Below, piece after piece: positions 5,267 to 22,842 of a DNA stretch of 22,842 nucleotides. The position numbers were made by a program, and so were the translations under genes. Origin of the DNA: a virus. The stretch is from positions 1-22,842 of the IMG/VR virus record IMGVR_UViG_3300022602_000451; one strand, written 5' to 3'. Positions within the stretch are counted from its first letter, which is position 1. Each line of letters begins with the position of its first letter. The notes under the pieces are model-generated. The model was not told where the DNA came from. It saw nothing but the letters and a program-made list of their open reading frames with translations, and did no database searches.

Positions 5267-5701
5267 ATGAGATTCGCTGTATTAGATAACAGCGATGCAA
5301 GTAATCCTGATTATTTTTACATACCGCTGATTTTTCTGGAAAGTTTTACAGGACCAGCAGTAGTTCTAAAAATAGGCGAACACGAAATAACTATGCCATT
5401 AGATTGGTGTACTATCGTAGGAGATCCAGAAGGGCCCGAAATGGAAGTGTTGCCAATCACTAGTCTTAATGATCGAGGATTCAGAACATTTTGTTTTAAT
5501 CCATTGGGAAGTTTTCGACCAGAGTTTCATGACATTGATATTATAAATGTCTATCAAGACGTAAAATGGTATTTTCCAAAGATGCGTCAAGGTCAACTGT
5601 TATGCACTCCTTTACATGCCGGAGACAATCCACTCTGTGCTTATTTTGTTAAAGAAGTCAGCAGACAAAGCGAGTTGGTGGATTACACCAAATGCTGGTA
5701 A
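5267..5701 (+). CDS. conserved T4-like phage protein of unknown function (start uncertain)
   Basis: 144 aa from the first ATG; probably about 23 residues longer (see 5186-5266). It is rich in beta-type segments: YFYIPLIFLESFTGPAVVLKI, ITMPLDWCTIVGD, FRTFCFNPLGSFRPEF and VKWYFPKMRQGQLLCTPL. It ends in a YFVKEVSRQSELVDY segment. I recognise this as a type of conserved hypothetical protein in marine T4-like phages but know no function. There are no catalytic signatures or membrane segments. It is the first gene after the uvsW block and is overlapped by 10 nt by the following ORF. There is no ribosome site close to 5267, which favours the upstream start. Confidence 0.7.
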   Translation: MRFAVLDNSDASNPDYFYIPLIFLESFTGPAVVLKIGEHEITMPLDWCTIVGDPEGPEMEVLPITSLNDRGFRTFCFNPLGSFRPEFHDIDIINVYQDVKWYFPKMRQGQLLCTPLHAGDNPLCAYFVKEVSRQSELVDYTKCW

Positions 5702-5946
5702 AGCACAGTATAGAAATGGTTATATTCCACTATGATGGAGGCAAGCACGGTGGATGGGCTAAATCGCAAAGTGGTGACGGAAAAGTATCCGGACACTATG
5801 ATCGAACCGAATGGTGGCCTTGCGAAAATGTCCTAGAACCTTTACAATATACTCAAGCACTAGAATTAGCAGAAGATGTTCCTGCACTAAAAAAAGCTCT
5901 AGAGCAAGTAGCAATATTGTATAAACTAAGCAAGGATGAAAAATGA
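5692..5946 (+). CDS. small unknown protein, first of a tandem pair
   Basis: 84 aa, or 76 aa if the second ATG at 5716 (MVIFHYDGG) is used; that start removes the overlap with the preceding gene. Contains HYDGGKHGGWAKSQSGDGKV and a WWP motif, then a helical tail, AEDVPALKKALEQVAILYKL. The tail is similar to that of the next protein (AKKTPSVKIALQNLINLHNL), so the two share a C-terminal module. The stop overlaps the next start (ATGA). The family is not recognised. Confidence 0.65.
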   Translation: MLVKHSIEMVIFHYDGGKHGGWAKSQSGDGKVSGHYDRTEWWPCENVLEPLQYTQALELAEDVPALKKALEQVAILYKLSKDEK

Positions 5947-12547: not shown

Positions 12548-13240
12548 ATGAACATATCAGAATTTACGCCCGGTGTAGAGATACACGATCAACTGAATCC
12601 TTTACTGTGGGATGGAGACAGACTTAAACCAGAAGTTAGATTGAGCCTACAGCACACGGCCCATCGTTTTGAGCTATTCCTAGGAATACCAGTCAAGGTC
12701 GTTGACACCATCATCACTGGCAGCCAAACAGCCTACACCTACACAGCCATGAGCGATATCGATCTACACCTCGTGGTAGACTACCGTTCAATACAAGGCT
12801 GTGACGTGCCCGTACACGAGCTGTTTGATACCAAACGCAAACTGTGGAAAGAAGAACATGCGATAGAGATATATGGTATACCTGTAGAATGCTATGTAGA
12901 AGATCTAGCAGAACCCGTTAACGGACACAGCTACTCCATCGAGCACAATCATTGGATCAAAGAACCCAGACAGATCGAGGACCATACACTGCCCGATGAT
13001 GTTATAGCGGGCACAGCGGCATGGACCACAGTGATCAAAGATGCTATCGCCAGCCGCAATCTAGATGTACTGAACAAAACCAAACAGCTACTGCGTGACT
13101 ACAGAGGTAGGGGATTAGGCAGCCAGGGCGAAATGGGTACTGCTAACTTGGTGTTTAAGACACTGCGCAACAATGGCGTTATCAGTGATCTGATGAAATC
13201 CATACGAAAACTGGAAGATCGCAATCTCAGTTTACGCTAA
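12548..13240 (+). CDS. nucleotidyltransferase-fold protein (Pol beta-like)
   Basis: 230 aa. An opening LNPLLWDGDRLKPEVRLSLQ is typical of a widespread group in marine T4-like phages. The NTase core is IITGSQTAYTYTAMSDIDLH: the GS pair (58-59) followed by D-x-D (Asp70, Asp72), with a candidate third carboxylate near Glu114 (IPVECYVED). The C-terminal half is helical (TAAWTTVIKDAIASRNLDVL ... LLRDYRGRGL). The fold transfers nucleotides to proteins, RNA or small molecules. The substrate is unknown and no antitoxin-like neighbour is seen. Expressed from a late promoter at its start. Confidence 0.75.
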   Translation: MNISEFTPGVEIHDQLNPLLWDGDRLKPEVRLSLQHTAHRFELFLGIPVKVVDTIITGSQTAYTYTAMSDIDLHLVVDYRSIQGCDVPVHELFDTKRKLWKEEHAIEIYGIPVECYVEDLAEPVNGHSYSIEHNHWIKEPRQIEDHTLPDDVIAGTAAWTTVIKDAIASRNLDVLNKTKQLLRDYRGRGLGSQGEMGTANLVFKTLRNNGVISDLMKSIRKLEDRNLSLR

Positions 13241-16175: not shown

Positions 16176-16293
16176 CAAGAATAGAACAGGGCAGGAAGGG
16201 AAAAGGGTCTTTAAGGAGGGAAAAATTCTGCTGTGCAAAATTTGCAGGCCGTGGAGATCTCGGCCCCTGGTGATTACATCTAACTGGGGAAGG

Positions 16294-16345
16294 TTTTTGG
16301 GGATTTTTTTTTTGAGAGATTTTTTGGGATTTTTTGAGATTTTTT
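16294..16345. repeat. phased T-tracts (predicted bent DNA)
   Basis: Runs of 5 to 10 T begin at 16294, 16304, 16320, 16330 and 16340, separated by short G/A linkers (GGGA, GAGA). Three six-T tracts are exactly one helical turn apart, the classical layout of intrinsic curvature. Confidence 0.6.
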
Positions 16346-16918: not shown

Positions 16919-17028
16919 ACGATCAACCCAGCGAGGTAGTGGACCAAGGCCACGGCAGTGATAGATGATACCAGCAGTGTGAGAGCCAGTATGAGTAGCA
17001 GTAGGGGAATCAGTGTGTCCTGTTTCAT
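16915..17028 (-). CDS. 37-aa membrane peptide
   Basis: ATG at 17028 with AAGGA 11 nt upstream, stop inside the next start. The sequence starts MKQDTLIPLLLLILALTLLV and continues into SSITAVALVHYLAGLIV: a long hydrophobic stretch, one or two spans. A TATAAT box lies at 17064-17069, overlapping the stop codon of the upstream gene. First of two overlapping micro-membrane genes. Function unknown. Confidence 0.6.
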   Translation of the reverse strand: MKQDTLIPLLLLILALTLLVSSITAVALVHYLAGLIV

Positions 17029-17063
17029 GCTCAGTGTGTCCTTGATAGTGTGTGTGTGCTTGT

Positions 17064-17069
17064 ATTATA
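17064..17069 (-). promoter_or_regulatory. -10 box TATAAT for the micro-membrane pair
   Basis: GTAGTATAATAC on the minus strand, about 35 nt before ATG 17028. The TAA of the upstream gene is part of the box. No good -35 seen. Same leader style (ATCAAGGACACAC) as the early cassettes. Confidence 0.5.
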
Positions 17070-17301
17070 CTACAGCTCGATATAACCCTACGCAGCCTAT
17101 GGCTAATGCCACTAGGTTAATCACTAGCTGAGGCCTATTTGACGCCCGGAGGCTCCACGTGAGAAACATGATGGTACCCACTAGGAATGATACTATGTTC
17201 CAGGGATAGACCGAGGGGCCAATGCTGTTCATAAGGTGTCCCCCTATGATAAAAGCGGCTCCTATCCATTGTAGCGTGTCGTTGATCTGTTGAGGTGTCA
17301 T
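17065..17301 (-). CDS. small integral membrane protein, about three spans
   Basis: 78 aa. Spans near residues 12-30 (WIGAAFIIGGHLMNSIG), 33-50 (YPWNIVSFLVGTIMFLTWSL) and 59-75 (LVINLVALAIGCVGLYRA). The GHLMNS-x-GP-x-x-YPWNI pattern is of a type seen repeatedly in marine phage membrane proteins of unknown function. The ATG lies inside the reading frame of the preceding ORF, giving a 167-nt overlap that is unusual for this genome. Stop codon overlaps the next promoter. Confidence 0.7.
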   Translation of the reverse strand: MTPQQINDTLQWIGAAFIIGGHLMNSIGPSVYPWNIVSFLVGTIMFLTWSLRASNRPQLVINLVALAIGCVGLYRAVV

Positions 17302-17449
17302 TATTTGGTCTTTCAGGATGTACAGCGGGGTTTGGGCTAGATAATGCCTGTGCCAGCAGGTTGCCAGCTGTGAATACGGCTAGAGCTATCAAGAAGGATG
17401 CTACCAAGACTGCGATCACAGCCATGAGTTGTTTCACACTATTAGCCAT
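17135..17449 (-). CDS. membrane-anchored small protein, C-terminus probably frameshifted
   Basis: From ATG 17449 (AAAGG upstream): MANSVKQLMAVIAVLVASFL then IALAVFTAGNLLAQAL, one strong membrane helix, then a polar SSPNPAVHPERPNND. After about residue 52 the frame runs for 167 nt through the next gene, giving an unlikely His/Pro-rich tail. A one-base shift in the CCCC run near 17327 would end the protein at a TGA just upstream of the next gene. The start and helix are trusted; the C-terminus is not. Confidence 0.5.
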   Translation of the reverse strand: MANSVKQLMAVIAVLVASFLIALAVFTAGNLLAQALSSPNPAVHPERPNNDTSTDQRHATMDRSRFYHRGTPYEQHWPLGLSLEHSIIPSGYHHVSHVEPPGVK

Positions 17450-17550
17450 TTGATACCTTTCACTTGCTGACCGCGGCTGCTCCAATAAGGGACAGCCCAC
17501 GCTAGGTTAGTCTCTGTGACTATTAACCTGTTGTTGAGATATACCAGCAT
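17434..17550 (-). CDS. 38-aa small protein
   Basis: ATG at 17550 begins one base after the stop of the preceding gene, and the stop at 17434 overlaps the following start by 16 nt. It reads MLVYLNNRLIVTETNLAWAV then PYWSSRGQQVKGIKWLIV, a compact beta-like sequence. No obvious ribosome site, so coupling to the upstream gene is assumed. The protein-like sequence and tight packing support it, but it is small. Confidence 0.45.
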   Translation of the reverse strand: MLVYLNNRLIVTETNLAWAVPYWSSRGQQVKGIKWLIV

Positions 17551-17551
17551 T

Positions 17552-17758
17552 TTAGCATTCTGAGTCATAGCTGATCCATTCGTCGTGCTCTGTGGGCGCT
17601 CCATCGATTTCTTCTTCCTCGAGAAATATCTCTTCGATCTCCAAGCTAGCGTAGGTAGTGTCTAAGATCTCGTATAGTTCAGACATGCTGTCCGCTTCTA
17701 TCTGCAGCTGACCGTAGGGTTGATCAGGGGTGTAATAACAGACTGTGTAAACTGACAT
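17552..17758 (-). CDS. small acidic early protein
   Basis: 68 aa from ATG 17758, preceded by AAAGGAGCACACACT, the standard early leader; a longer ORF upstream runs through the promoter and is rejected. Begins MSVYTVCYYTPDQPYGQLQI, with a strongly acidic IEEIFLEEEEIDG patch. A near-perfect promoter (TTGACA-N17-TATAAT) stands in front. No family recognised. Early expression plus acidity would suit a host-takeover inhibitor, which is only a guess. Confidence 0.7.
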   Translation of the reverse strand: MSVYTVCYYTPDQPYGQLQIEADSMSELYEILDTTYASLEIEEIFLEEEEIDGAPTEHDEWISYDSEC

Positions 17759-17788
17759 AGTGTGTGCTCCTTTGTTGCTATGTTGTGT

Positions 17789-17817
17789 ATTATAACTCCA
17801 AATCAACTATTTGTCAA
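17789..17817 (-). promoter_or_regulatory. early promoter TTGACA-N17-TATAAT
   Basis: -35 at 17812-17817, -10 at 17789-17794, exact consensus and spacing, about 30 nt before ATG 17758. The -35 lies 5 nt past the end of the codons of the upstream gene's tail. Confidence 0.8.
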
Positions 17818-18006
17818 TACTCCGGCTAGCTGTAGGGCTATTTGAGTGCGGAACTCCTCAGAGGGGATACCAGTCTTGTCCACATAGATTTGAATCAGTT
17901 GATCGCGAAGATCAGCCCAACGTTTGAAACTACGATAGATCGCGAATTGAAAAACAGGTTGTTCCATGTCTTTAAGAAACAATTCAAAAACTTTCTCTTT
18001 TCCCAC
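17803..18006 (-). CDS. small unknown early protein (GTG start)
   Basis: 67 aa from GTG 18006, chosen because AAGGAGCACACT stands right before it; the ORF is open further upstream but that part is promoter. Begins MGKEKVFELFLKDMEQPVFQ and continues FAIYRSFKRWADLRDQLIQI, helical and amphipathic. The stop lies between the -10 and -35 of the next promoter. No family recognised. Confidence 0.65.
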   Translation of the reverse strand: MGKEKVFELFLKDMEQPVFQFAIYRSFKRWADLRDQLIQIYVDKTGIPSEEFRTQIALQLAGVLTNS

Positions 18007-18037
18007 AGTGTGCTCCTTGTGTGCTGTTGATGTTAGT

Positions 18038-18065
18038 ATTATACGATCAAAACAGTGGCTGTCAA
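18038..18065 (-). promoter_or_regulatory. early promoter TTGACA-N16-TATAAT
   Basis: -35 at 18060-18065, -10 at 18038-18043. Drives the GTG-start gene at 18006 through a 31-nt leader. Confidence 0.75.
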
Positions 18066-18108
18066 CCATTATTTTTCTACTTTTACATTTCTTTACAATA
18101 CATTATCT

Positions 18109-18146
18109 TACCCCTGTCATGCATGCGCACGCTTGTGACCGGGGTA
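18109..18146 (-). terminator. strong hairpin after the zinc-motif gene
   Basis: TACCCC-T-GTCA pairs with TGAC-C-GGGGTA (one mismatch), 16-nt loop, directly after the stop at 18149. No U-run follows, so it may block readthrough or protect the 3' end and is not a standard intrinsic terminator. Confidence 0.5.
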
Positions 18147-18148
18147 GA

Positions 18149-18388
18149 TCAGCTGAACTCTTCGATAAGGTAATCGTTGTAGGCCGCGTTGAGATCATCG
18201 ATGAGATCCTGCAGGCTCAGCTGGCGTTGATGTCGTTTGCGGCCCTTGACCGCTGAACCTTCCTGGTACACGGACCACACGTGATGACCGCAATAGCTTT
18301 TGTTGGGCACGCTAGGATTACTGCAGGTCTTTGATTCCGACTCGGGCCCCATCCACTGACAGGTTGGTTCGTGATGCGTTGCTTTCAT
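18149..18388 (-). CDS. small protein with GcrA-like CxC...CGHH zinc motif
   Basis: 79 aa. Residues 10-45 read CQWMG ... KTCSNPSVPNKSYCGHHVWS followed by VYQEGSA. This copies the zinc-binding C-terminal block of alphaproteobacterial GcrA (C-[KR]-W-x ... F-C-G-x-P-x-x-P-x-x-PYC-x-x-H-x-x-x-x-Y). The N-terminal GcrA DNA-binding domain is absent; instead a basic GRKRHQRQ link leads to an acidic helix (LQDLIDDLNAAYNDYLIEEF). GcrA works with sigma-70 RNA polymerase, so interference with host transcription is a possible role, not shown. It overlaps the upstream gene's end by 71 nt. Confidence 0.65.
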   Translation of the reverse strand: MKATHHEPTCQWMGPESESKTCSNPSVPNKSYCGHHVWSVYQEGSAVKGRKRHQRQLSLQDLIDDLNAAYNDYLIEEFS

Positions 18389-18641
18389 GGTGTTCCCTTA
18401 ATTCTTTTAGTTGTCGTTGATATTGCGTGGCCAGCATGTTGGCCTGCTTGATCCCCTCGGCGGCTGTCTGCAGTGCATCCGCGTACTCCCAGGCGGCATC
18501 TCGGTGGCCTTCATCTCGGGCCACCCATTCGATCGCCCAGAACAAGGCTATGAGACACCAAAACTGCCAGCCCCAGGCAGTTACCCCAAGGCTGTCGATT
18601 ACCAAGCCCAAGGTAGCGTACAGTGCTATGCGTTCTATCAT
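18318..18641 (-). CDS. membrane protein with coiled-coil tail, coupled to AAA+ gene
   Basis: 107 aa. Two hydrophobic segments (ALYATLGLVIDSLG, and WQFWCLIALFWAIEWVA; residues about 6-42), then a charged helical tail (YADALQTAAEGIKQANMLAT, QYQRQLKELREHHESN) likely to form a coiled coil in the cytoplasm. It starts in the stop of the AAA+ ATPase gene (ATGA) and its end overlaps the zinc-motif gene in another frame by 71 nt. A membrane anchor for the ATPase is a reasonable inference. Rz-type spanins also have a membrane helix plus coiled coil, but no lipoprotein partner is seen. Confidence 0.65.
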   Translation of the reverse strand: MIERIALYATLGLVIDSLGVTAWGWQFWCLIALFWAIEWVARDEGHRDAAWEYADALQTAAEGIKQANMLATQYQRQLKELREHHESNASRTNLSVDGARVGIKDLQ

Positions 18642-19510
18642 AACAAGTTACGACGCATACAGGTAGTACGAGCCATAGCCTGCCAGTTAGAGGGGAACGC
18701 TTTGCGTAAGTCTGCTAGCTTTAGCACCATGCGTAGACTTAGCTCACGTAACTTATCCTTGTGATCTTCTACGAACTGTACGATCTCTGCCTTAACAGCG
18801 GGGTCTTCCCACTCGTACCTATCAAGCATACCCTCGGACACGATCTGTTTGATACGCAAGATCTTCTCGCGTGTTGTGTCCATCTGTAGATCGATATAGT
18901 GGCAGCGGCTTTCCAATGCGTTCAAATGCTCACGTAGCTTTTTGCTCTTCACATGCTCGAACTTGATGTTCGTGATAAAGATAGCCGACCCCTTGAACTC
19001 AAAGCGATCAGGAATGCCTTCCCCGCGCAATAATCTTGAGTCTGTGTTCCAGGCTATAAAGCGTCTCTCACTGCTGTCAAGTGCACCCTTGAGTATGTTC
19101 AGGGAAAGCTCGTCTAGCAAGATCTGATCACAGTCGTCGAACACCACCACGTGATTCTCTGCGGCAAATGCGTAGAGTTTAGCGTATAATCCTAGCGCAG
19201 ACATCGCACCTTTAACCACTTCGTACTTGGGAGGACGTTCACCTAACATGTCAAACAGGCCATCCTTCTGGAGTACTGCTTCCACGCCGTGGCTTTTGCC
19301 CACTCCCGGAGGACCGCTCACGATCATAGCTCTGACATCCCCGCGCTTGATAGCTTTGGTCATGTCATCAAGAATGTTGAAACGTTCTTTAAGGCGCAGT
19401 GTGATCTCCTCGTCTGTCTCTTGCGCTACAGCTTGCTCGCGTGCACGGATAGCCTCGAGATCAAACTCCAGGATAGTGGTGCCCTTGTCTACAGCTTGTG
19501 CTTTTGCCAT
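18638..19510 (-). CDS. AAA+ ATPase (early)
   Basis: 290 aa. Walker A is GPPGVGKS (66-73), Walker B is VVVFDDCD (121-128), sensor-1-like ITN (179-181) with a possible arginine finger at ALESRC (about Arg202), and a helical lid domain at the C-terminus (EIVQFVEDHKDKLRELSLRM). It lacks extra domains. The build is like small phage AAA+ proteins of the MoxR/CobS or clamp-loader-like type; the exact clade is unclear. It has its own consensus early promoter and heads a three-gene unit with a membrane coiled-coil protein and a zinc protein. A role in remodelling a host complex is inference. Confidence 0.85.
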   Translation of the reverse strand: MAKAQAVDKGTTILEFDLEAIRAREQAVAQETDEEITLRLKERFNILDDMTKAIKRGDVRAMIVSGPPGVGKSHGVEAVLQKDGLFDMLGERPPKYEVVKGAMSALGLYAKLYAFAAENHVVVFDDCDQILLDELSLNILKGALDSSERRFIAWNTDSRLLRGEGIPDRFEFKGSAIFITNIKFEHVKSKKLREHLNALESRCHYIDLQMDTTREKILRIKQIVSEGMLDRYEWEDPAVKAEIVQFVEDHKDKLRELSLRMVLKLADLRKAFPSNWQAMARTTCMRRNLL

Positions 19511-19542
19511 TTGTGTTCCTTATGTGCTGTTGTAAAAAGTGT

Positions 19543-19571
19543 ATTATAACACTATTTACGGATGTTGTCAA
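19543..19571 (-). promoter_or_regulatory. early promoter TTGACA-N17-TATAAT (AAA+ unit)
   Basis: -35 at 19566-19571, -10 at 19543-19548, full consensus. Leader ends ATAAGGAACACAA before ATG 19510. Confidence 0.8.
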
Positions 19572-19574
19572 CGG

Positions 19575-19772
19575 TTAATCTTTGTTAATCTTAACATTTC
19601 CTCTAAGAGCGGCCCCTAGTAGGATAGTGGCAGACCAAGTGCTGATGTTGTAGTCGATGGCTAACACAGGGAACAGTGTGTTGAGTGCCCAGATGGTCAG
19701 CAGGGGTCCTACCACGACCATGGCTATGATCACTATCAGTACCCCTAATGCTTTTGCTGTTTCTTCTGTCAT
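19575..19772 (-). CDS. small two-span membrane protein
   Basis: 65 aa. Begins MTEETAKALGVLIVIIAMVV, then VGPLLTIWALNTLFPVLAID and a second span YNISTWSATILLGAALRG, with a basic end (NVKINKD). The GPLLTIWALNTLFP block is of a type seen in many phage small membrane proteins of unknown function. No ribosome site precedes the ATG; instead a promoter's -10 box ends 6 nt before it, so the message is probably leaderless. The stop lies 4 nt before the -35 of the AAA+ promoter. Confidence 0.7.
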   Translation of the reverse strand: MTEETAKALGVLIVIIAMVVVGPLLTIWALNTLFPVLAIDYNISTWSATILLGAALRGNVKINKD

Positions 19773-19778
19773 GCTATA

Positions 19779-19807
19779 ATTGTACTTTCTTCATTGGTTA
19801 AGATCAA
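19779..19807 (-). promoter_or_regulatory. sigma-70 promoter TTGATC-N17-TACAAT, 6 nt from ATG
   Basis: -35 at 19802-19807, -10 at 19779-19784, spacer TATAGC before ATG 19772. Predicted start of transcription is at the start codon. Confidence 0.55.
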
Positions 19808-19812
19808 GTGGG

Positions 19813-19847
19813 ACCCCGGCGAGGATTCTCGAAACCGCCTCCGGGGT
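19813..19847 (-). terminator. GC hairpin between micro-membrane gene and next promoter
   Basis: ACCCCGG (19813-19819) pairs with CCGGGGT (19841-19847), with AGG/CCT extending the stem inside. No U-run follows. Lies between the stop at 19859 and the promoter at 19779-19807. Confidence 0.4.
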
Positions 19848-19858
19848 AGGGTTTGAGG

Positions 19859-19939
19859 TCACCAGGGACCGCCATTGATCAAACAGGCTAATCCTACGGC
19901 AGCGGCTGAGCCTGCTGTCCATGCGAGATAAACTAACAT
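19859..19939 (-). CDS. 26-aa membrane peptide
   Basis: ATG at 19939 with ACAAGGAGAACGCA in front, stop at 19859. Reads MLVYLAWTAGSAAAVGLACL then INGGPW: one short hydrophobic helix. The strong ribosome site and following hairpin support it. A perfect 12-bp palindrome (GCTGTATACAGC, 19958-19969) lies just upstream of the ribosome site. Function unknown. Confidence 0.5.
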   Translation of the reverse strand: MLVYLAWTAGSAAAVGLACLINGGPW

Positions 19940-19984
19940 TGCGTTCTCCTTGTTGCGGCTGTATACAGCGGGGTCTTTATGTAC

Positions 19985-20000
19985 GGGGGCGTGTGCCCCC
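19985..20000 (-). terminator. perfect GC hairpin after the acidic gene
   Basis: GGGGGC-GTGT-GCCCCC, 6-bp stem with 4-nt loop, 6 nt after the stop at 20007. No clear U-run; probably a transcript end or 3' protection element. Confidence 0.5.
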
Positions 20001-20006
20001 TCCTAG

Positions 20007-20300
20007 TTAGTAGTGATATCTGCTACCTACGTAGTTAAAATCCTCCATAGGATCTATAGCTTCGTCACTGTGTCCTCCTTCAAAGATGTAGTCCTCTTCT
20101 TCCTCATCTACTTCGTCCTCGTCCTCATCCCCAAGGTCAAGCAAACTGTTTACGCGGATCATGTCCTCTACGTCGCCTTCGCTCATATAGCAAAGGCATG
20201 CACGCAGTGCCGCCTCTGGGTCTAACAGTCCTTCTTCTACCGCTTCTAACAGTTTGCATGTGTATTCACGGGATTTTGCTGAATCATAAAACATTGTCAT
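20007..20300 (-). CDS. conserved acidic early protein
   Basis: 97 aa from ATG 20300, where AAGGAGCGCAAA gives the ribosome site. N-terminal half helical: MTMFYDSAKSREYTCKLLEA, then VEEGLLDPEAALRACLCYMS and EGDVEDMIRVN. The second half is Asp/Glu-rich (LGDEDEDEVDEEEEDY). The 'ACL-x-YMSE-x-[DE]V-x-DM' string belongs to a conserved hypothetical protein of T4-like marine phages. Function unknown. Its promoter's -35 sits within the loop of the upstream gene's hairpin. Confidence 0.75.
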   Translation of the reverse strand: MTMFYDSAKSREYTCKLLEAVEEGLLDPEAALRACLCYMSEGDVEDMIRVNSLLDLGDEDEDEVDEEEEDYIFEGGHSDEAIDPMEDFNYVGSRYHY

Positions 20301-20327
20301 TTTGCGCTCCTTGTTAAACATGTCTAC

Positions 20328-20363
20328 ATTATATAACATAAAGTGGGCCTGTCAACCCACTTT
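20328..20363 (-). promoter_or_regulatory. fused hairpin and early promoter (TTGACA in the loop)
   Basis: AAAGTGGG (20340-20347) and CCCACTTT (20356-20363) form an 8-bp stem whose 8-nt loop holds TTGACA (minus strand, 20350-20355). The -10 TATAAT is at 20328-20333, spacer 16. The same 36 bp serve as the 3' hairpin of the gene at 20372 and as promoter for ATG 20300. Confidence 0.7.
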
Positions 20364-20377
20364 ACAAAACTTTACAC
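20360..20377 (-). repeat. CTTTACAAAA repeat (copy A)
   Basis: CTTTACAAAACTTTACAC, shared with 21679-21706, both at the 3' ends of early genes. Here it includes the stop codon at 20372. Confidence 0.55.
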
Positions 20378-20701
20378 AGTTTCCCTCTGTCTAAAGAACT
20401 CATCTATTGCCGTTCTCACGCAGTGCTCCGCGTCGTTAGTGTGTCCACCTATGTGCCAGTCAACTACACGCTCGGGGTCTACTCCGTACTGTTTCCAGTC
20501 GTATATGGTCGCTACTGTAGTAGCATCGCTAACAGGGTCTGTAAAGACTAACACCCACTCCGCTTGTACTTTGTCCCCCGCCGCCCATCTCTCTGGCTCC
20601 CCAAAGATTTCCACCAGCGAGGCGTAGTTTATGTTGATGTGGCCCCGTAAACTAGTGCCATTTACTACGTCCCAGTCTGTTGCTCTTTGCCATGCTTTCA
20701 T
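20372..20701 (-). CDS. conserved phage protein of unknown function
   Basis: 109 aa from ATG 20701 (AAAGGAGCACACG in front). Begins MKAWQRATDWDVVNGTSLRG, with HININYASLVEIFGEPERW, KVQAEWVLVF, VATIYDWKQYG and WHIGGHTNDAEHC. The 'NGTSL-x-G-x-I ... Y-x-x-LV-x-x-FGEP ... AEW ... ATIYDWK ... WHIGG' order is a recurring conserved hypothetical family in phages. No catalytic residues are obvious. It is an early gene in its own terminator-promoter cassette. Confidence 0.75.
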   Translation of the reverse strand: MKAWQRATDWDVVNGTSLRGHININYASLVEIFGEPERWAAGDKVQAEWVLVFTDPVSDATTVATIYDWKQYGVDPERVVDWHIGGHTNDAEHCVRTAIDEFFRQRETV

Positions 20702-20728
20702 CGTGTGCTCCTTTGTTAAAGTAACGGT

Positions 20729-20760
20729 ATTATAACACAAATAAAAGCCCTTGCGGGCTT
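20729..20760 (-). promoter_or_regulatory. cassette: intrinsic terminator plus TATAAT promoter
   Basis: Terminator AAGCCC-TTGC-GGGCTT (20745-20760), with TTTTA after it on the minus strand, followed at once by TGTTATAATAC (-10 at 20729-20734, extended -10). Then leader GTTACTTTAACAAAGGAGC and ATG 20701. A near-identical cassette is at 22719-22750. Confidence 0.8.
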
Positions 20761-20764
20761 AGGG

Positions 20765-21085
20765 TTAATCCATCCTGCTGCCTGCATAAGCTCTAAGTCC
20801 CAAGCTCTGCAGATATGTAGCCAGTGCCTGTGCACCCGCCTCTTTCACTGAAATACTCTGTGTGGGAATCTTTGCGGGATCCCAGTAATTGAGGCATTTG
20901 GGTTTGTAGTCCTTCTTAAAGCCGGCCTTGATCAATTCTTTGGCCTGTGGGGAATTTGTTCGGTCTACGTAGACATCCACCCAACCGAAGCCGCAGGCAT
21001 CACGCTCCCCTACTTTATTGTGCATCTCAACACCTGCGAGATGTGCTAGTAAAAAACCTGCTTGGATCTGTTCTGCTGTAATCAT
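20765..21085 (-). CDS. conserved phage protein of unknown function
   Basis: 106 aa. AAAGGAGCAGACG precedes the ATG. Starts MITAEQIQAGFLLAHLAGVE, then CGFGWVDVYVDR (about 31-42), LIKAGFKKDYKPK, NYWDP, and a conserved end EAGAQALATYLQSLGL then RAYAGSRMD. The 'CGF-x-WV-x-V ... W-[ND]-P ... EAGA-x-A ... L-x-x-x-G-x-x-AYAGSR-x-D' order recurs in phage hypothetical proteins. No known activity. It has its own promoter and a terminator behind it. Confidence 0.75.
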   Translation of the reverse strand: MITAEQIQAGFLLAHLAGVEMHNKVGERDACGFGWVDVYVDRTNSPQAKELIKAGFKKDYKPKCLNYWDPAKIPTQSISVKEAGAQALATYLQSLGLRAYAGSRMD

Positions 21086-21112
21086 CGTCTGCTCCTTTGT
21101 TAAAGTAAGTGT

Positions 21113-21150
21113 ATTATAAGTTCAAAAAGAAACCCGCACAAATGGCGGGC
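21113..21150 (-). promoter_or_regulatory. cassette: terminator plus TATAAT promoter
   Basis: CCCGC (21133-21137) and GCGGG (21145-21149) with a 7-nt loop and TTTCTTTTT after it on the minus strand, then -10 TATAAT at 21113-21118 for ATG 21085. Confidence 0.75.
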
Positions 21151-21160
21151 TTTTGTGTTG

Positions 21161-21334
21161 TTAAGCGTCCACTTCCATTACATCCACATTAATAACAGCA
21201 TCCCCATCCCAGTCCGCTTGTATTTGCTGTATGTGTGCGTTTGCTAGTTTTTGTGTACTATGTGCGCTTATGTTGTAAAATGCGTCCTCGTCATCCCCCC
21301 ATCCCTTTACTTGTACTATGTAAACTTTTTGCAT
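21161..21334 (-). CDS. 57-aa early protein
   Basis: ATG 21334 with AAAAGGAGCACAAC in front, TAA at 21161. Begins MQKVYIVQVKGWGDDEDAFY, continues NISAHSTQKLANAHIQQIQA and DWDGDAVINVDVMEVDA: a small beta-alpha-beta-like protein. It sits in a full cassette (own promoter at 21363-21368, terminator after the stop). Function unknown. Missed by a 60-aa size limit. Confidence 0.7.
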   Translation of the reverse strand: MQKVYIVQVKGWGDDEDAFYNISAHSTQKLANAHIQQIQADWDGDAVINVDVMEVDA

Positions 21335-21362
21335 GTTGTGCTCCTTTTGTTAAAGTAAATGT

Positions 21363-21400
21363 ATTATAACACAAAAAGAAACCCGCACAAGTGGCGGGTT
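21363..21400 (-). promoter_or_regulatory. cassette: terminator plus TATAAT promoter
   Basis: AACCCGC (21380-21386) and GCGGGTT (21394-21400), 7-bp stem, TTCTTTTT behind it on the minus strand, then TGTTATAATAC (-10 at 21363-21368) for ATG 21334. Confidence 0.8.
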
Positions 21401-21410
21401 ATTGTTATTG

Positions 21411-21596
21411 TTAAGCGCCCGTATAGTATTTTACGCTGTCCCGCCCTCCAAATATGTTTATGTAAAGCCACACGCCATTTGCTTTCATTTTGTATCCCTC
21501 AGCATACCAATTTTTTAATTGCCTTGTGCTTTGTCTGTTTGTTTTTGTTTTTGCATTATTAAACGCTAATGCTTGTGCTAGTGTAAGTCTGCGCAT
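21411..21596 (-). CDS. small basic early protein
   Basis: 61 aa from ATG 21596 (ATGGAGCACAT in front; upstream in-frame codons belong to the leader). Begins MRRLTLAQALAFNNAKTKTN and continues RQSTRQLKNWYAEGYKMKAN, basic and probably helical, then GVWLYINIFGGRDSVKYY. It might bind nucleic acid given its charge; family not recognised. Its leader is longer than in other cassettes and holds an extra hairpin (21621-21640). Confidence 0.65.
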   Translation of the reverse strand: MRRLTLAQALAFNNAKTKTNRQSTRQLKNWYAEGYKMKANGVWLYINIFGGRDSVKYYTGA

Positions 21597-21620
21597 ATGT
21601 GCTCCATATTTGTTAAAACG

Positions 21621-21640
21621 CTTTAGCACTATTGCTAAAG
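21621..21640 (-). promoter_or_regulatory. 5'-leader hairpin of the 21596 gene
   Basis: CTTTAGCA (21621-21628), loop of 4, TGCTAAAG (21633-21640): perfect 8-bp stem between -10 box and ribosome site, only in this cassette. Confidence 0.6.
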
Positions 21641-21647
21641 TAAATGT

Positions 21648-21682
21648 ATTATACACAAAAAAAGCACAGTTTCCTGTGCTTT
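21648..21682 (-). promoter_or_regulatory. cassette: strong terminator plus TATAAT promoter
   Basis: AAAGCACAG (21661-21669) and CTGTGCTTT (21674-21682), 9-bp stem with 4-nt loop, followed on the minus strand by a run of T, then GTGTATAATAC (-10 at 21648-21653). Confidence 0.85.
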
Positions 21683-21706
21683 ACAAAACTTTACAAAACT
21701 TTACAC
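21679..21706 (-). repeat. CTTTACAAAA repeat (copy B, three units)
   Basis: Three units of CTTTACAAAA/CTTTACAC in tandem, between the stop-side hairpin (21708-21727) and the terminator. The same motif occurs twice at 20360-20377. Confidence 0.6.
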
Positions 21707-21707
21707 T

Positions 21708-21727
21708 GTGTGGCATTTATGCCACAC
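21708..21727 (-). terminator. 3' hairpin of the YubB-like gene
   Basis: GTGTGGCA-TTTA-TGCCACAC, perfect 8-bp stem, 8 nt past the stop at 21736. It is followed by the CTTTACAAAA repeats and then by a second, U-tailed hairpin. Confidence 0.55.
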
Positions 21728-21735
21728 ATCATGAT

Positions 21736-22341
21736 TTATTCGTTTACAGAATCGATACCGCCGTCTAGTTCAATCTCTTGATTCTCCTCGTCTTCATACT
21801 CGGCAATCGTTTCTGATATCGCAAACATCTCATCGAGATCCTCGGGGATCTCATCCTTGACTTGATCGCTAGTCATGTCAGAGAGATCGTAGCCTTCGTC
21901 CCCGTCTGCATCAAACACGCCACAGAAGGCCATACCGGGTTCATAGTAGTAGGCTTTGACACCAAACCCTAGATCAAGTAATCTCTCGTAGGCAGCGGTG
22001 GGAGGTGCCCATGCTGAATCAAATGACATACGGACACTGTTAGAATCCAGCTTAGTGACCATACTGTCATCGCCGCCGATGTCCCACTTGGTGCCCCACT
22101 CGTTGACGCAGAAGTCATACCAGTTTTTGTAACCGTGTGTGACTTTATTGTCTAGCTCTTTCTGCTCTAAGGCCTTTTGCTCTTCAGGATCTCCCACACG
22201 GCCTGCCACGATATGCAGGTCTGGAGGTATAGGAATGAACTCATCAAGCAGTCTGCTATCGATAAATGCTTTAGTCGCACGCTCGATCATCAGGGGATCA
22301 TCGTGGGTTAAAGTGAGATTGTTGTTACACCAGTTTGGCAT
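21736..22341 (-). CDS. YubB/DUF1281-like protein (ferredoxin-like api domain)
   Basis: 201 aa, CTAAGGAGCTTCT before the ATG. Starts MPNWCNNNLTLTHDD, the hallmark MPNWC-x-N opening. Then FIPIPPDL (about 35-42), NWYDFCVNEWGTKWDIGGDD (about 73-92; family WY-x-W ... WGTKWD), SFDSAWAPPTAAYERLLDLG (family F-x-TAWSPP) and YYYEPGMAFCGVFD (family Y-x-EPG-x-x-FCG). The C-terminal 45 residues are an acidic tail (DLDEMFAISETIAEYEDEEN). The family is common on plasmids and phages; its job is not known. Third gene of an operon starting at 22697. Confidence 0.85.
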   Translation of the reverse strand: MPNWCNNNLTLTHDDPLMIERATKAFIDSRLLDEFIPIPPDLHIVAGRVGDPEEQKALEQKELDNKVTHGYKNWYDFCVNEWGTKWDIGGDDSMVTKLDSNSVRMSFDSAWAPPTAAYERLLDLGFGVKAYYYEPGMAFCGVFDADGDEGYDLSDMTSDQVKDEIPEDLDEMFAISETIAEYEDEENQEIELDGGIDSVNE

Positions 22342-22350
22342 AGAAGCTCC

Positions 22351-22524
22351 TTAGATTGTTGAAGTGTCGATTACGCTGTCTGCAAGTAAGACCGTGATCT
22401 CGTAGCCTTTTTTGCAACGGAATCTCGCCTGTGCCAGTCGCTGTGCCTCATATGAGCTCGAAGCTTGGACAGCGATTTCCTTGCCGCGATAAACGCAGAT
22501 GTAGTCTCTTATGGTCAGTGTCAT
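22351..22524 (-). CDS. 57-aa conserved small protein
   Basis: ATG 22524 overlaps the stop of the preceding gene (ATGA), CAAGGAGATCGC in front; TAA at 22351. Reads MTLTIRDYICVYRGKEIAVQ, ASSSYEAQRLAQARFRCKKG, YEITVLLADSVIDTSTI. The 'Y-x-GKE-x-x-V-x-A-x-SSYEAQ ... KK-x-Y-[DE]-[IV]-TV-x-LA' pattern is a conserved small hypothetical protein of marine phages. The next gene follows after 9 nt. Not listed by 60-aa cut-offs but well supported. Confidence 0.75.
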   Translation of the reverse strand: MTLTIRDYICVYRGKEIAVQASSSYEAQRLAQARFRCKKGYEITVLLADSVIDTSTI

Positions 22525-22697
22525 GCGATCTCCTTGGGGGTAAAAAGTTGTTTGAAACCAGCCATTACGATAAAGTAATGTGATAGTTCTAGTAAACTAA
22601 ACTCATATTGATGATCGCCTATGTAAAGCAGTGTCTCTAACATAGGCATCTCCAGTTGCTCTGATATAGCTTGTACGGTTGCTAGTGCGTCGTCCAT
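22521..22697 (-). CDS. 58-aa early protein, first of the operon
   Basis: From ATG 22697 (AAAGGAGCACACG in front). Begins MDDALATVQAISEQLEMPML and continues ETLLYIGDHQYEFSLLELSH, YFIVMAGFKQLFTPKEIA. Helical, no membrane span, family not recognised. Its stop overlaps the next start. Promoter and upstream terminator at 22719-22750. Confidence 0.65.
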   Translation of the reverse strand: MDDALATVQAISEQLEMPMLETLLYIGDHQYEFSLLELSHYFIVMAGFKQLFTPKEIA

Positions 22698-22718
22698 CGT
22701 GTGCTCCTTTAAAACTGT

Positions 22719-22750
22719 ATTATAACACAATAAAAAGCCCTTGCGGGCTT
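22719..22750 (-). promoter_or_regulatory. cassette: intrinsic terminator plus TATAAT promoter
   Basis: AAGCCC-TTGC-GGGCTT (22735-22750) followed on the minus strand by TTTTTATTG and TGTTATAATAC (-10 at 22719-22724). Nearly the same sequence as the cassette at 20729-20760, including the flanking AGGGTTAAT with the upstream stop codon. Confidence 0.85.
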
Positions 22751-22754
22751 AGGG

Positions 22755-22842
22755 TTAATATTGTCCGTAGTAGGCAAACGTCACGTAGGGATCTAACGCT
22801 GCCAGCTCAGAGGCCGCCCCTGTGAGTAGTGCTTGCTTTTGG
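22755..22842 (-). CDS. C-terminal fragment of an early gene (enters from right edge)
   Basis: Open frame from the right edge to TAA at 22755: 28 codons starting QKQALLTGAASELAALDPYV and ending TFAYYGQY. The terminator 5 nt behind the stop and the shared cassette structure support a real gene. Too little is visible to name it. Confidence 0.5.
   Translation of the reverse strand, partial: QKQALLTGAASELAALDPYVTFAYYGQY

What the first reader, a model, noticed from the sequence alone, without database searches (positions are those of the whole stretch)
16928..22750. Array of terminator-promoter-leader cassettes (PeSL-like) in a marine-type phage
About ten early genes carry the same upstream block: hairpin with T-run, TATAATAC, an ACTTTAACAAAGGAGCACAC-type leader, then ATG. 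Two copies (20729-20768 and 22719-22758) are nearly identical over about 40 bp, up to the stop codon of the gene before. T4-type phages are known to carry mobile promoter-early-stem-loop cassettes that shuffle small genes; this looks like the same principle with different sequences. Identical ends would let single genes be swapped by recombination.
Basis: partly seen in the sequence, partly recalled or inferred. Interest (0 to 1): 0.75.

Follow-up and report, generated by a model that had tools for sequence, protein, structure and literature searches.

The report
Plug-in promoter-terminator cassettes of a phage
Many small early genes of this uncultured T4-type phage each sit behind a short block that seems to end the previous message and start the next one, and comparison with related phages shows genes being gained, lost and swapped at such blocks, as known for other T4-type phages but with the parts arranged differently.

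Summary
The blocks are real. Ten promoters precede minus-strand genes between 22.76 and 17.03 kb; six carry a strong hairpin (five with a T-rich tail), four do not, so "the same block at about ten genes" overstates it. The strict promoter-leader pattern occurs 304 times on the gene strand and never on the other in 80 relatives. Across 1,487 distinct blocks, 352 have strong stems, mostly far above column-shuffled controls, in three layouts: before the -35 box, over it, or in the spacer. Stem mismatches favour G.U over A.C 67:21, so the hairpins act in RNA of the gene strand. Exchange at blocks is visible: of 51 distinct clean indels between close relatives, 18 fall in blocks against 3.8 expected, 13 of 18 with direct repeats of 8 bp or more against 2 of 15 at plain gene starts. 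Two phages 96% alike differ by a segment ending at a block's ribosome site. This works like the PeSL cassettes of T4-type phages; RB49's hairpins often sit around the -10 box, these over the -35 box. New variant of a known kind. Termination and promoter activity are inferred.

The parts
22719..22758 (-). Block A: stop codon of the gene before (22757-22755), hairpin 22750-22735 with T-run, extended -10 TGTGTTATAAT (TATAAT 22724-22719); no -35 match; gene starts at 22697
21648..21682 (-). Block B: hairpin 21682-21661 with T-run, TATAAT 21653-21648; leader has a second hairpin 21640-21621; gene starts at 21596. The same hairpin fronts a different gene in L003
   Evidence: exact 25-mer found only in the contig of L003 in the viral collection
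21363..21400 (-). Block C: hairpin 21400-21380, TTGTGC at the -35 place in loop and 3' arm, T-run as spacer, TATAAT 21368-21363; gene starts at 21334
21113..21152 (-). Block D: hairpin 21152-21130, T-run, TATAAT 21118-21113; gene starts at 21085
20729..20768 (-). Block E: near copy of block A; hairpin 20760-20745, TATAAT 20734-20729; gene starts at 20701
20328..20365 (-). Block F: 12-bp hairpin 20365-20338 that holds the full TTGACA (20355-20350) in its loop region, TATAAT 20333-20328; gene starts at 20300
   Evidence: fold -16.1 kcal/mol, 0 of 200 shuffles as good
19543..19571 (-). Block G: TTGACA-17-TATAAT promoter without hairpin; AAA ATPase gene starts at 19510
   Evidence: weak fold
18038..18065 (-). 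Block H: TTGACA-16-TATAAT promoter without strong hairpin; gene starts at 18006 (GTG)
17789..17817 (-). Block I: TTGACA-17-TATAAT promoter without strong hairpin; gene starts at 17758
17064..17069 (-). Block J: weak promoter, TATAAT only; gene starts at 17028
21411..21596 (-). Small gene (61 aa) between blocks B and C, absent at this place from L005 and L007
21161..21334 (-). 57-aa gene between blocks C and D; L005 carries an allele 98% identical to it where its near-twin L007 has one 52% identical

Best explanation
The early region is a row of plug-in gene units. Many unit borders are a block of about 60-90 bp in which the intrinsic terminator of the upstream gene and the sigma-70 early promoter of the downstream gene are fused. 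In the window the hairpin lies on the -35 site, its T-rich tail fills the -35/-10 spacer and TATAATAC follows at once; a short A-rich leader with AAGGAGCACA leads to the start codon. An upstream transcript would stop just before the next promoter's start site, so a gene can be added or removed without disturbing its neighbours' expression. Because blocks within a genome resemble each other, mostly in the -10 box, leader and ribosome site, recombination (presumably the phage's UvsX system) between blocks adds, deletes or swaps single genes and leaves hybrid blocks. Shown by sequence: blocks, hairpin enrichment and RNA-sense bias, indels and replacements at blocks, hybrid blocks. Inferred: promoter activity, early timing, termination, the recombinase. 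It works like the PeSL cassettes of T4-type phages, with the hairpin placed differently.
For: Strict pattern 304 on the gene strand, 0 on the other, 0 in shuffled or reversed sequence in 80 relatives. Stems of score 18 or more in 352 of 1,487 distinct blocks: before -35 113 (14.0 column-shuffled), over -35 116 (14.7), spacer 92 (6.3). G.U 67 vs A.C 21 in one-mismatch stems, p=9e-7; over -35 40 vs 8, spacer 12 vs 2. More T after stems than expected, clearest over -35 (0.50 vs 0.34). 51 distinct clean indels: 18 in blocks, expected 3.8, sd 1.7; repeats of 8 bp or more at 13 of 18 block indels vs 2 of 15 at plain starts, p=0.0013. L039/L054: single gene between two TATAATACACACATGGACA copies, hybrid block where it is absent. 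L003 vs window: 96% identity ends at a block whose hairpin in the window fronts another gene. L005/L007: 96.3% alike over 8.4 kb, a mosaic segment ends 9 bases before a start codon, and L005's inner block matches block A of the window 97% over 39 bp. Unrelated genes share exact 22-nt leaders: 83 leaders, 44 of them within one locus.
Against: Four of the ten window blocks lack a strong hairpin, and 1,135 of 1,487 distinct blocks (window included) have no stem above the threshold, so many units are not insulated. 15 of 51 indels lie at plain gene starts (expected 4.2) and 18 elsewhere; per base the excess of blocks over plain starts is only about 1.6-fold (18/18,964 vs 15/25,183). The two blocks flanking an inserted gene are not significantly more alike than other blocks of that genome (8 testable of 18, p=0.14). 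The class before -35 shows no clear G.U bias (15 vs 11), and T enrichment in the spacer class is slight (0.50 vs 0.46). Exact sharing of a whole hairpin by unrelated genes is rare (6 of 339 distinct hairpins). Blocks A to E of the window lack a recognisable -35 box.
Confidence: 0.78

Rival explanations
1. The blocks are only ordinary strong host-type promoters and terminators in a compact genome. Gene gain and loss happen by illegitimate recombination anywhere, and only events at gene borders survive selection, so blocks look like hot spots.
For: Indels are also enriched at plain gene starts (15 vs 4.2 expected); L039/L054 at 2413 gained or lost a gene with no block repeat; flanking blocks not more alike than others.
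Against: Direct repeats of 8 bp or more at 13 of 18 block indels vs 2 of 15 at plain starts; hybrid blocks; per border 18 of 268 vs 15 of 602, p=0.006.
Confidence: 0.25
2. The hairpins are not terminators but 3' end protectors or RNase sites of the upstream message, with transcription reading through.
For: Several stems, mainly in the spacer class, lack a real T-run (T 0.50 vs 0.46 expected).
Against: T-runs after the window hairpins and after stems over -35 (0.50 vs 0.34); hairpin placed directly before a start site.
Confidence: 0.2
3. The dyads are DNA operators bound by a repressor or activator that regulates the early promoters.
For: Dyads overlap -35 and -10; a recurrent spacer motif TGGTAAAACC in 76 of 517 blocks could be a protein site.
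Against: Stem sequences differ from block to block while pairing is kept; G.U favoured over A.C, which a DNA site would not show.
Confidence: 0.06

Closest known systems
PeSL cassettes (promoter-early stem-loop) of T4-type phages RB49, phi1, PST, nt-1 (Arbiol 2010; Comeau 2014; titles seen only in reference lists, abstracts and phage names recalled)
   Same: Sigma-70 type promoter fused with a stem-loop, between small non-core genes of a T4-type phage, with gene gain, loss and exchange at the cassettes. [quoted passage not shown]
   Different: In the 62 kb of RB49 examined, 15 of 18 promoters have stems: 7 around the -10 box, 4 in the spacer, 3 before -35, 1 in the leader, none over -35 (stem score 16 or more). 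Here stems lie before -35, over -35 or in the spacer, and around -10 at about chance (7 vs 4.3, score 18 or more).
Salmonella phage Munch and other jumbo T4-superfamily phages
   Same: UvsX 61-67% identical; Munch has 7 matches of the TTGACA/TATAAT/GGAG pattern, one with the spacer motif TTGGTAATACC and one RB49-like.
   Different: No match in three other jumbo relatives by UvsX (Vibrio 2.275.O, XaC1, Phosso) nor in PA5oct. No dense block array was seen by this pattern.

Membership tests
PeSL cassette (definition recalled; papers not held) | Strong sigma-70-like early promoter | tested here: met
   By sequence: four perfect 12 of 12 promoters in the window; family consensus GGTTGACA-17-TATAATAC. 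Activity and timing not testable.
PeSL cassette (definition recalled; papers not held) | Stem-loop terminator combined with the promoter | tested here: met
   By sequence: six of ten window blocks; 352 of 1,487 distinct blocks, G.U bias. Termination itself not testable.
PeSL cassette (definition recalled; papers not held) | Lies between small variable genes of a T4-type phage | tested here: met
   T4-type single-strand binding protein, UvsX, helicases and primase in the window; gp23 in 6 of 10 relatives' contigs; gene content shuffled.
PeSL cassette (definition recalled; papers not held) | Recombination at the cassettes produces gene indels and replacements | tested here: met
   By comparison of relatives.
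PeSL cassette (definition recalled; papers not held) | Exchange between nearby cassettes yields packaged mini-circles (recalled) | not testable with these tools
   Needs reads or virion DNA.
PeSL cassette (definition recalled; papers not held) | Common descent with RB49 cassettes (not a defining feature as I recall it) | tested here: inconclusive
   Hairpin layout differs; some RB49 leaders resemble ones here, e.g. GCACACATACCAACTAAGGAG, which may be chance or shared need.

The most novel reading that the evidence does not exclude
A whole clade of uncultured jumbo T4-superfamily phages has its own form of composite border, in which the -35 box is shown in the loop of the upstream gene's terminator and the terminator's T-tract is the promoter spacer. 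Fused terminator-promoter exchange cassettes would then have been built more than once, with the -10 box in the loop in RB49 and the -35 box in the loop here, as a general solution that lets large phages trade single early genes without breaking expression.
Probability: 0.4. Interest if true: 0.62.

Novelty: new variant of a known kind. Interest (0 to 1): 0.5.

Why it matters
It extends the cassette-shuffling idea from a few cultured T4-type phages to a large uncultured clade with over a thousand distinct cassettes, gives base-resolved exchange events, and shows a different way of folding terminator and promoter into one another. That makes the question of how big phages trade early genes testable with simple reporters and read data.

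Tried and rejected
Blastn of the early region against named phages: no match. Key PeSL papers: not held. Rfam: 0 matches at gathering scores; tRNAs: 0. Of ten proteins given to Pfam, only the 19510 gene gave a family over its cut-off (AAA ATPase); a sub-threshold CEP76_N hit for window 12548-13240 was rejected as chance. Tested and not significant: likeness of the two blocks that flank inserts. The class before -35 lacks G.U bias. Considered and rejected: DNA operators (G.U bias). KVP40 first 50 kb and PA5oct 20.8 kb gave too few promoters to compare. Rows dropped: L001 and L002 (pieces of the window) from counts; an acidic promiscuous family from the neighbour test; near-duplicate inserts (92 to 51); redundant loci (81 to 55); loci L083-L093. 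In one search the no-cassette class includes later genes, so its contrast (upstream neighbour kept in 1135 of 3588 pairs without, 312 of 2613 with cassettes on both sides) is weak evidence. BLAST ends run on through conserved block motifs, so the enrichment (38% of 112 ends within 30 bp of a -10 box vs 19% in the control) is partly built in. Gene calls in relatives are from my own simple caller, not curated.
Full report
What the window is. The window is a 22,842-base virus record of its own. Its plus-strand genes include a T4-type single-strand binding protein, UvsX, a helicase, a primase and a DnaB-like helicase, and UvsX is 61-67% identical to jumbo T4-superfamily phages. Related contigs of 322-355 kb carry gp23, so the window is probably a fragment of a jumbo T4-superfamily phage (inference). 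No named phage matches the early region by DNA. The promoter matches of relatives cluster in one early region per contig, e.g. 12 of 12 at 22-33 kb in contig G009.

The observation. Ten promoters precede minus-strand genes from 22697 down to 17028. Five have a hairpin with T-rich tail whose stem covers the -35 site and whose -10 box is TATAAT, mostly preceded by TGTG; one (20300) has a 12-bp hairpin with the complete TTGACA in its loop region; three are plain TTGACA-TATAAT promoters; one is weak. Chance is excluded.

The same blocks in relatives. A scan for the ATPase gene at 19510 gave 80 loci. The strict pattern TATAATA[CA]-leader-AGGAG-ATG occurs 304 times on the gene strand and 0 times on the other, 0 in shuffled and 0 in reversed sequence; with the window, 309 blocks in 63 of 81 sequences. 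Three more scans brought the set to 238 sequences including the window, 3.0 Mb, 2,055 genes with a block, 1,487 distinct blocks in 187 sequences.

Hairpins. In the first set of 517 distinct blocks, stems of score 20 or more number 69 against 4.0 when each column is shuffled among blocks. In the 1,487-block set, stems of score 18 or more number 352: 113 before the -35 box, 116 over it, 92 in the spacer, 7 around -10, 24 mixed; the shuffled means are 14.0, 14.7, 6.3, 4.3 and 12.0. Pairing is therefore kept while sequence varies. Among stems with one mismatch, G.U on the gene strand outnumbers A.C 67 to 21, against 15.0 to 13.4 in shuffles; this holds over -35 (40:8) and in the spacer (12:2) but not before -35 (15:11). 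The hairpins thus act as RNA of the gene strand. T is in excess after stems over -35 (0.50 vs 0.34) and before it (0.41 vs 0.30), little in the spacer class (0.50 vs 0.46).

Exchange at the blocks. Gene order maps show single genes with their own promoters gained, lost and moved among relatives. Clean indels of 90-1600 bases with flanks at least 82% identical: 92 raw, 51 distinct; 18 in blocks, 15 at plain gene starts, 18 elsewhere. Random placement in the same aligned spans gives 3.8 in blocks (sd 1.7, largest of 2,000 trials 10) and 4.2 at plain starts. Direct repeats of at least 8 bp occur at 13 of 18 block indels, 2 of 15 start indels and 4 of 18 others, of which three repeats read like promoter pieces. 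Four cases were read base by base. L039 has one small gene between two blocks that share TATAATACACACATGGACA; L054 has a single hybrid block there. L054 has an extra gene between two copies of a ribosome-site repeat, TAAGGAAACAA(A/G)ATGAC. L064 has one relative to L053 at ACTAA(A)CAAGGAGCA. The fourth, L039/L054 at 2413, has no block.

The window's own neighbourhood. L005 and L007 lack the gene at 21596-21411 between hairpins. L003 is 96% identical to the window from 20831 to 20360, then turns, inside a block, into a block whose hairpin AAAGCACAGGAAACTGTGCTTT stands in the window before a different gene. L005 and L007 are 96.3% identical over 8.4 kb, but L005's allele of the 21334 gene is 98% identical to the window's while L007's is 52%. 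The stretch from about 5429 to 5909 is mosaic, returns to full identity at 5910, nine bases before the next start codon, and contains a block 97% identical over 39 bp to the window's block A, which in the window fronts an unrelated gene. Identity also drops at L005 4876-4950 inside a gene, so not every difference lies at a block.

Blocks are alike within a genome. Blocks of unrelated genes are on average 49% identical within a locus and 43% between loci, and pairs of at least 75% identity are 0.98% vs 0.04%. A shared host could also cause this. Exact 22-nt leaders are shared by unrelated genes in 83 cases, 44 of them within one locus; exact hairpins in only 6 of 339. So the shared stretch is mainly -10, leader and ribosome site, and hairpins diverge fast.

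Comparison with the known. PeSL cassettes are the closest known kind; their two papers are not held, so the definition is recalled, and only titles in reference lists and a citing passage were seen. I scanned 62 kb of RB49 myself: 18 promoters with ribosome site, 15 with stems of score 16 or more, 7 around -10, 4 in the spacer, 3 before -35, 1 in the leader, none over -35. The present clade uses the -35 place instead. Functionally it works like a PeSL array; by the broad definition it meets every feature that could be tested; common descent is open. Searches of the held paper library for terminator-promoter overlap in phages found nothing useful; this does not show that it is unpublished.

Noticed in passing
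window 16201-16345: Conserved non-coding element between the converging gene blocks; similar stretches in 31 other loci of 238 sequences searched (some from one contig), with a dyad GGCCGAGATCTCCACGGCC and an A/T-run on one side; no Rfam match. Perhaps an origin, terminator or RNA.
   Followed up: partly
promoter spacers of relatives, e.g. contig G009 22004-33042: Recurrent spacer motif TGGTAAAACC between -35 and -10 in 76 of 517 blocks versus 8 farther upstream; also in one Munch promoter. Could be a short hairpin or a protein site.
   Followed up: no
window 21640-21621: Second hairpin CTTTAGCAATAGTGCTAAAG inside the leader of block B, between promoter and ribosome site; unlike the other leaders.
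   Followed up: no
window 20701-20372: The 109-aa gene after block E is rare: 9 loci found, one at 93% (L003's contig), the rest at most 44%, as expected for a newly gained gene.
   Followed up: partly
L005 4876-4950 vs L007: A variable patch inside the gene homologous to window 22341-21736, away from any block.
   Followed up: no
RB49 promoters and relatives: RB49 leaders such as GCACACATACCAACTAAGGAG resemble leaders of this clade; shared origin or shared need not resolved.
   Followed up: no
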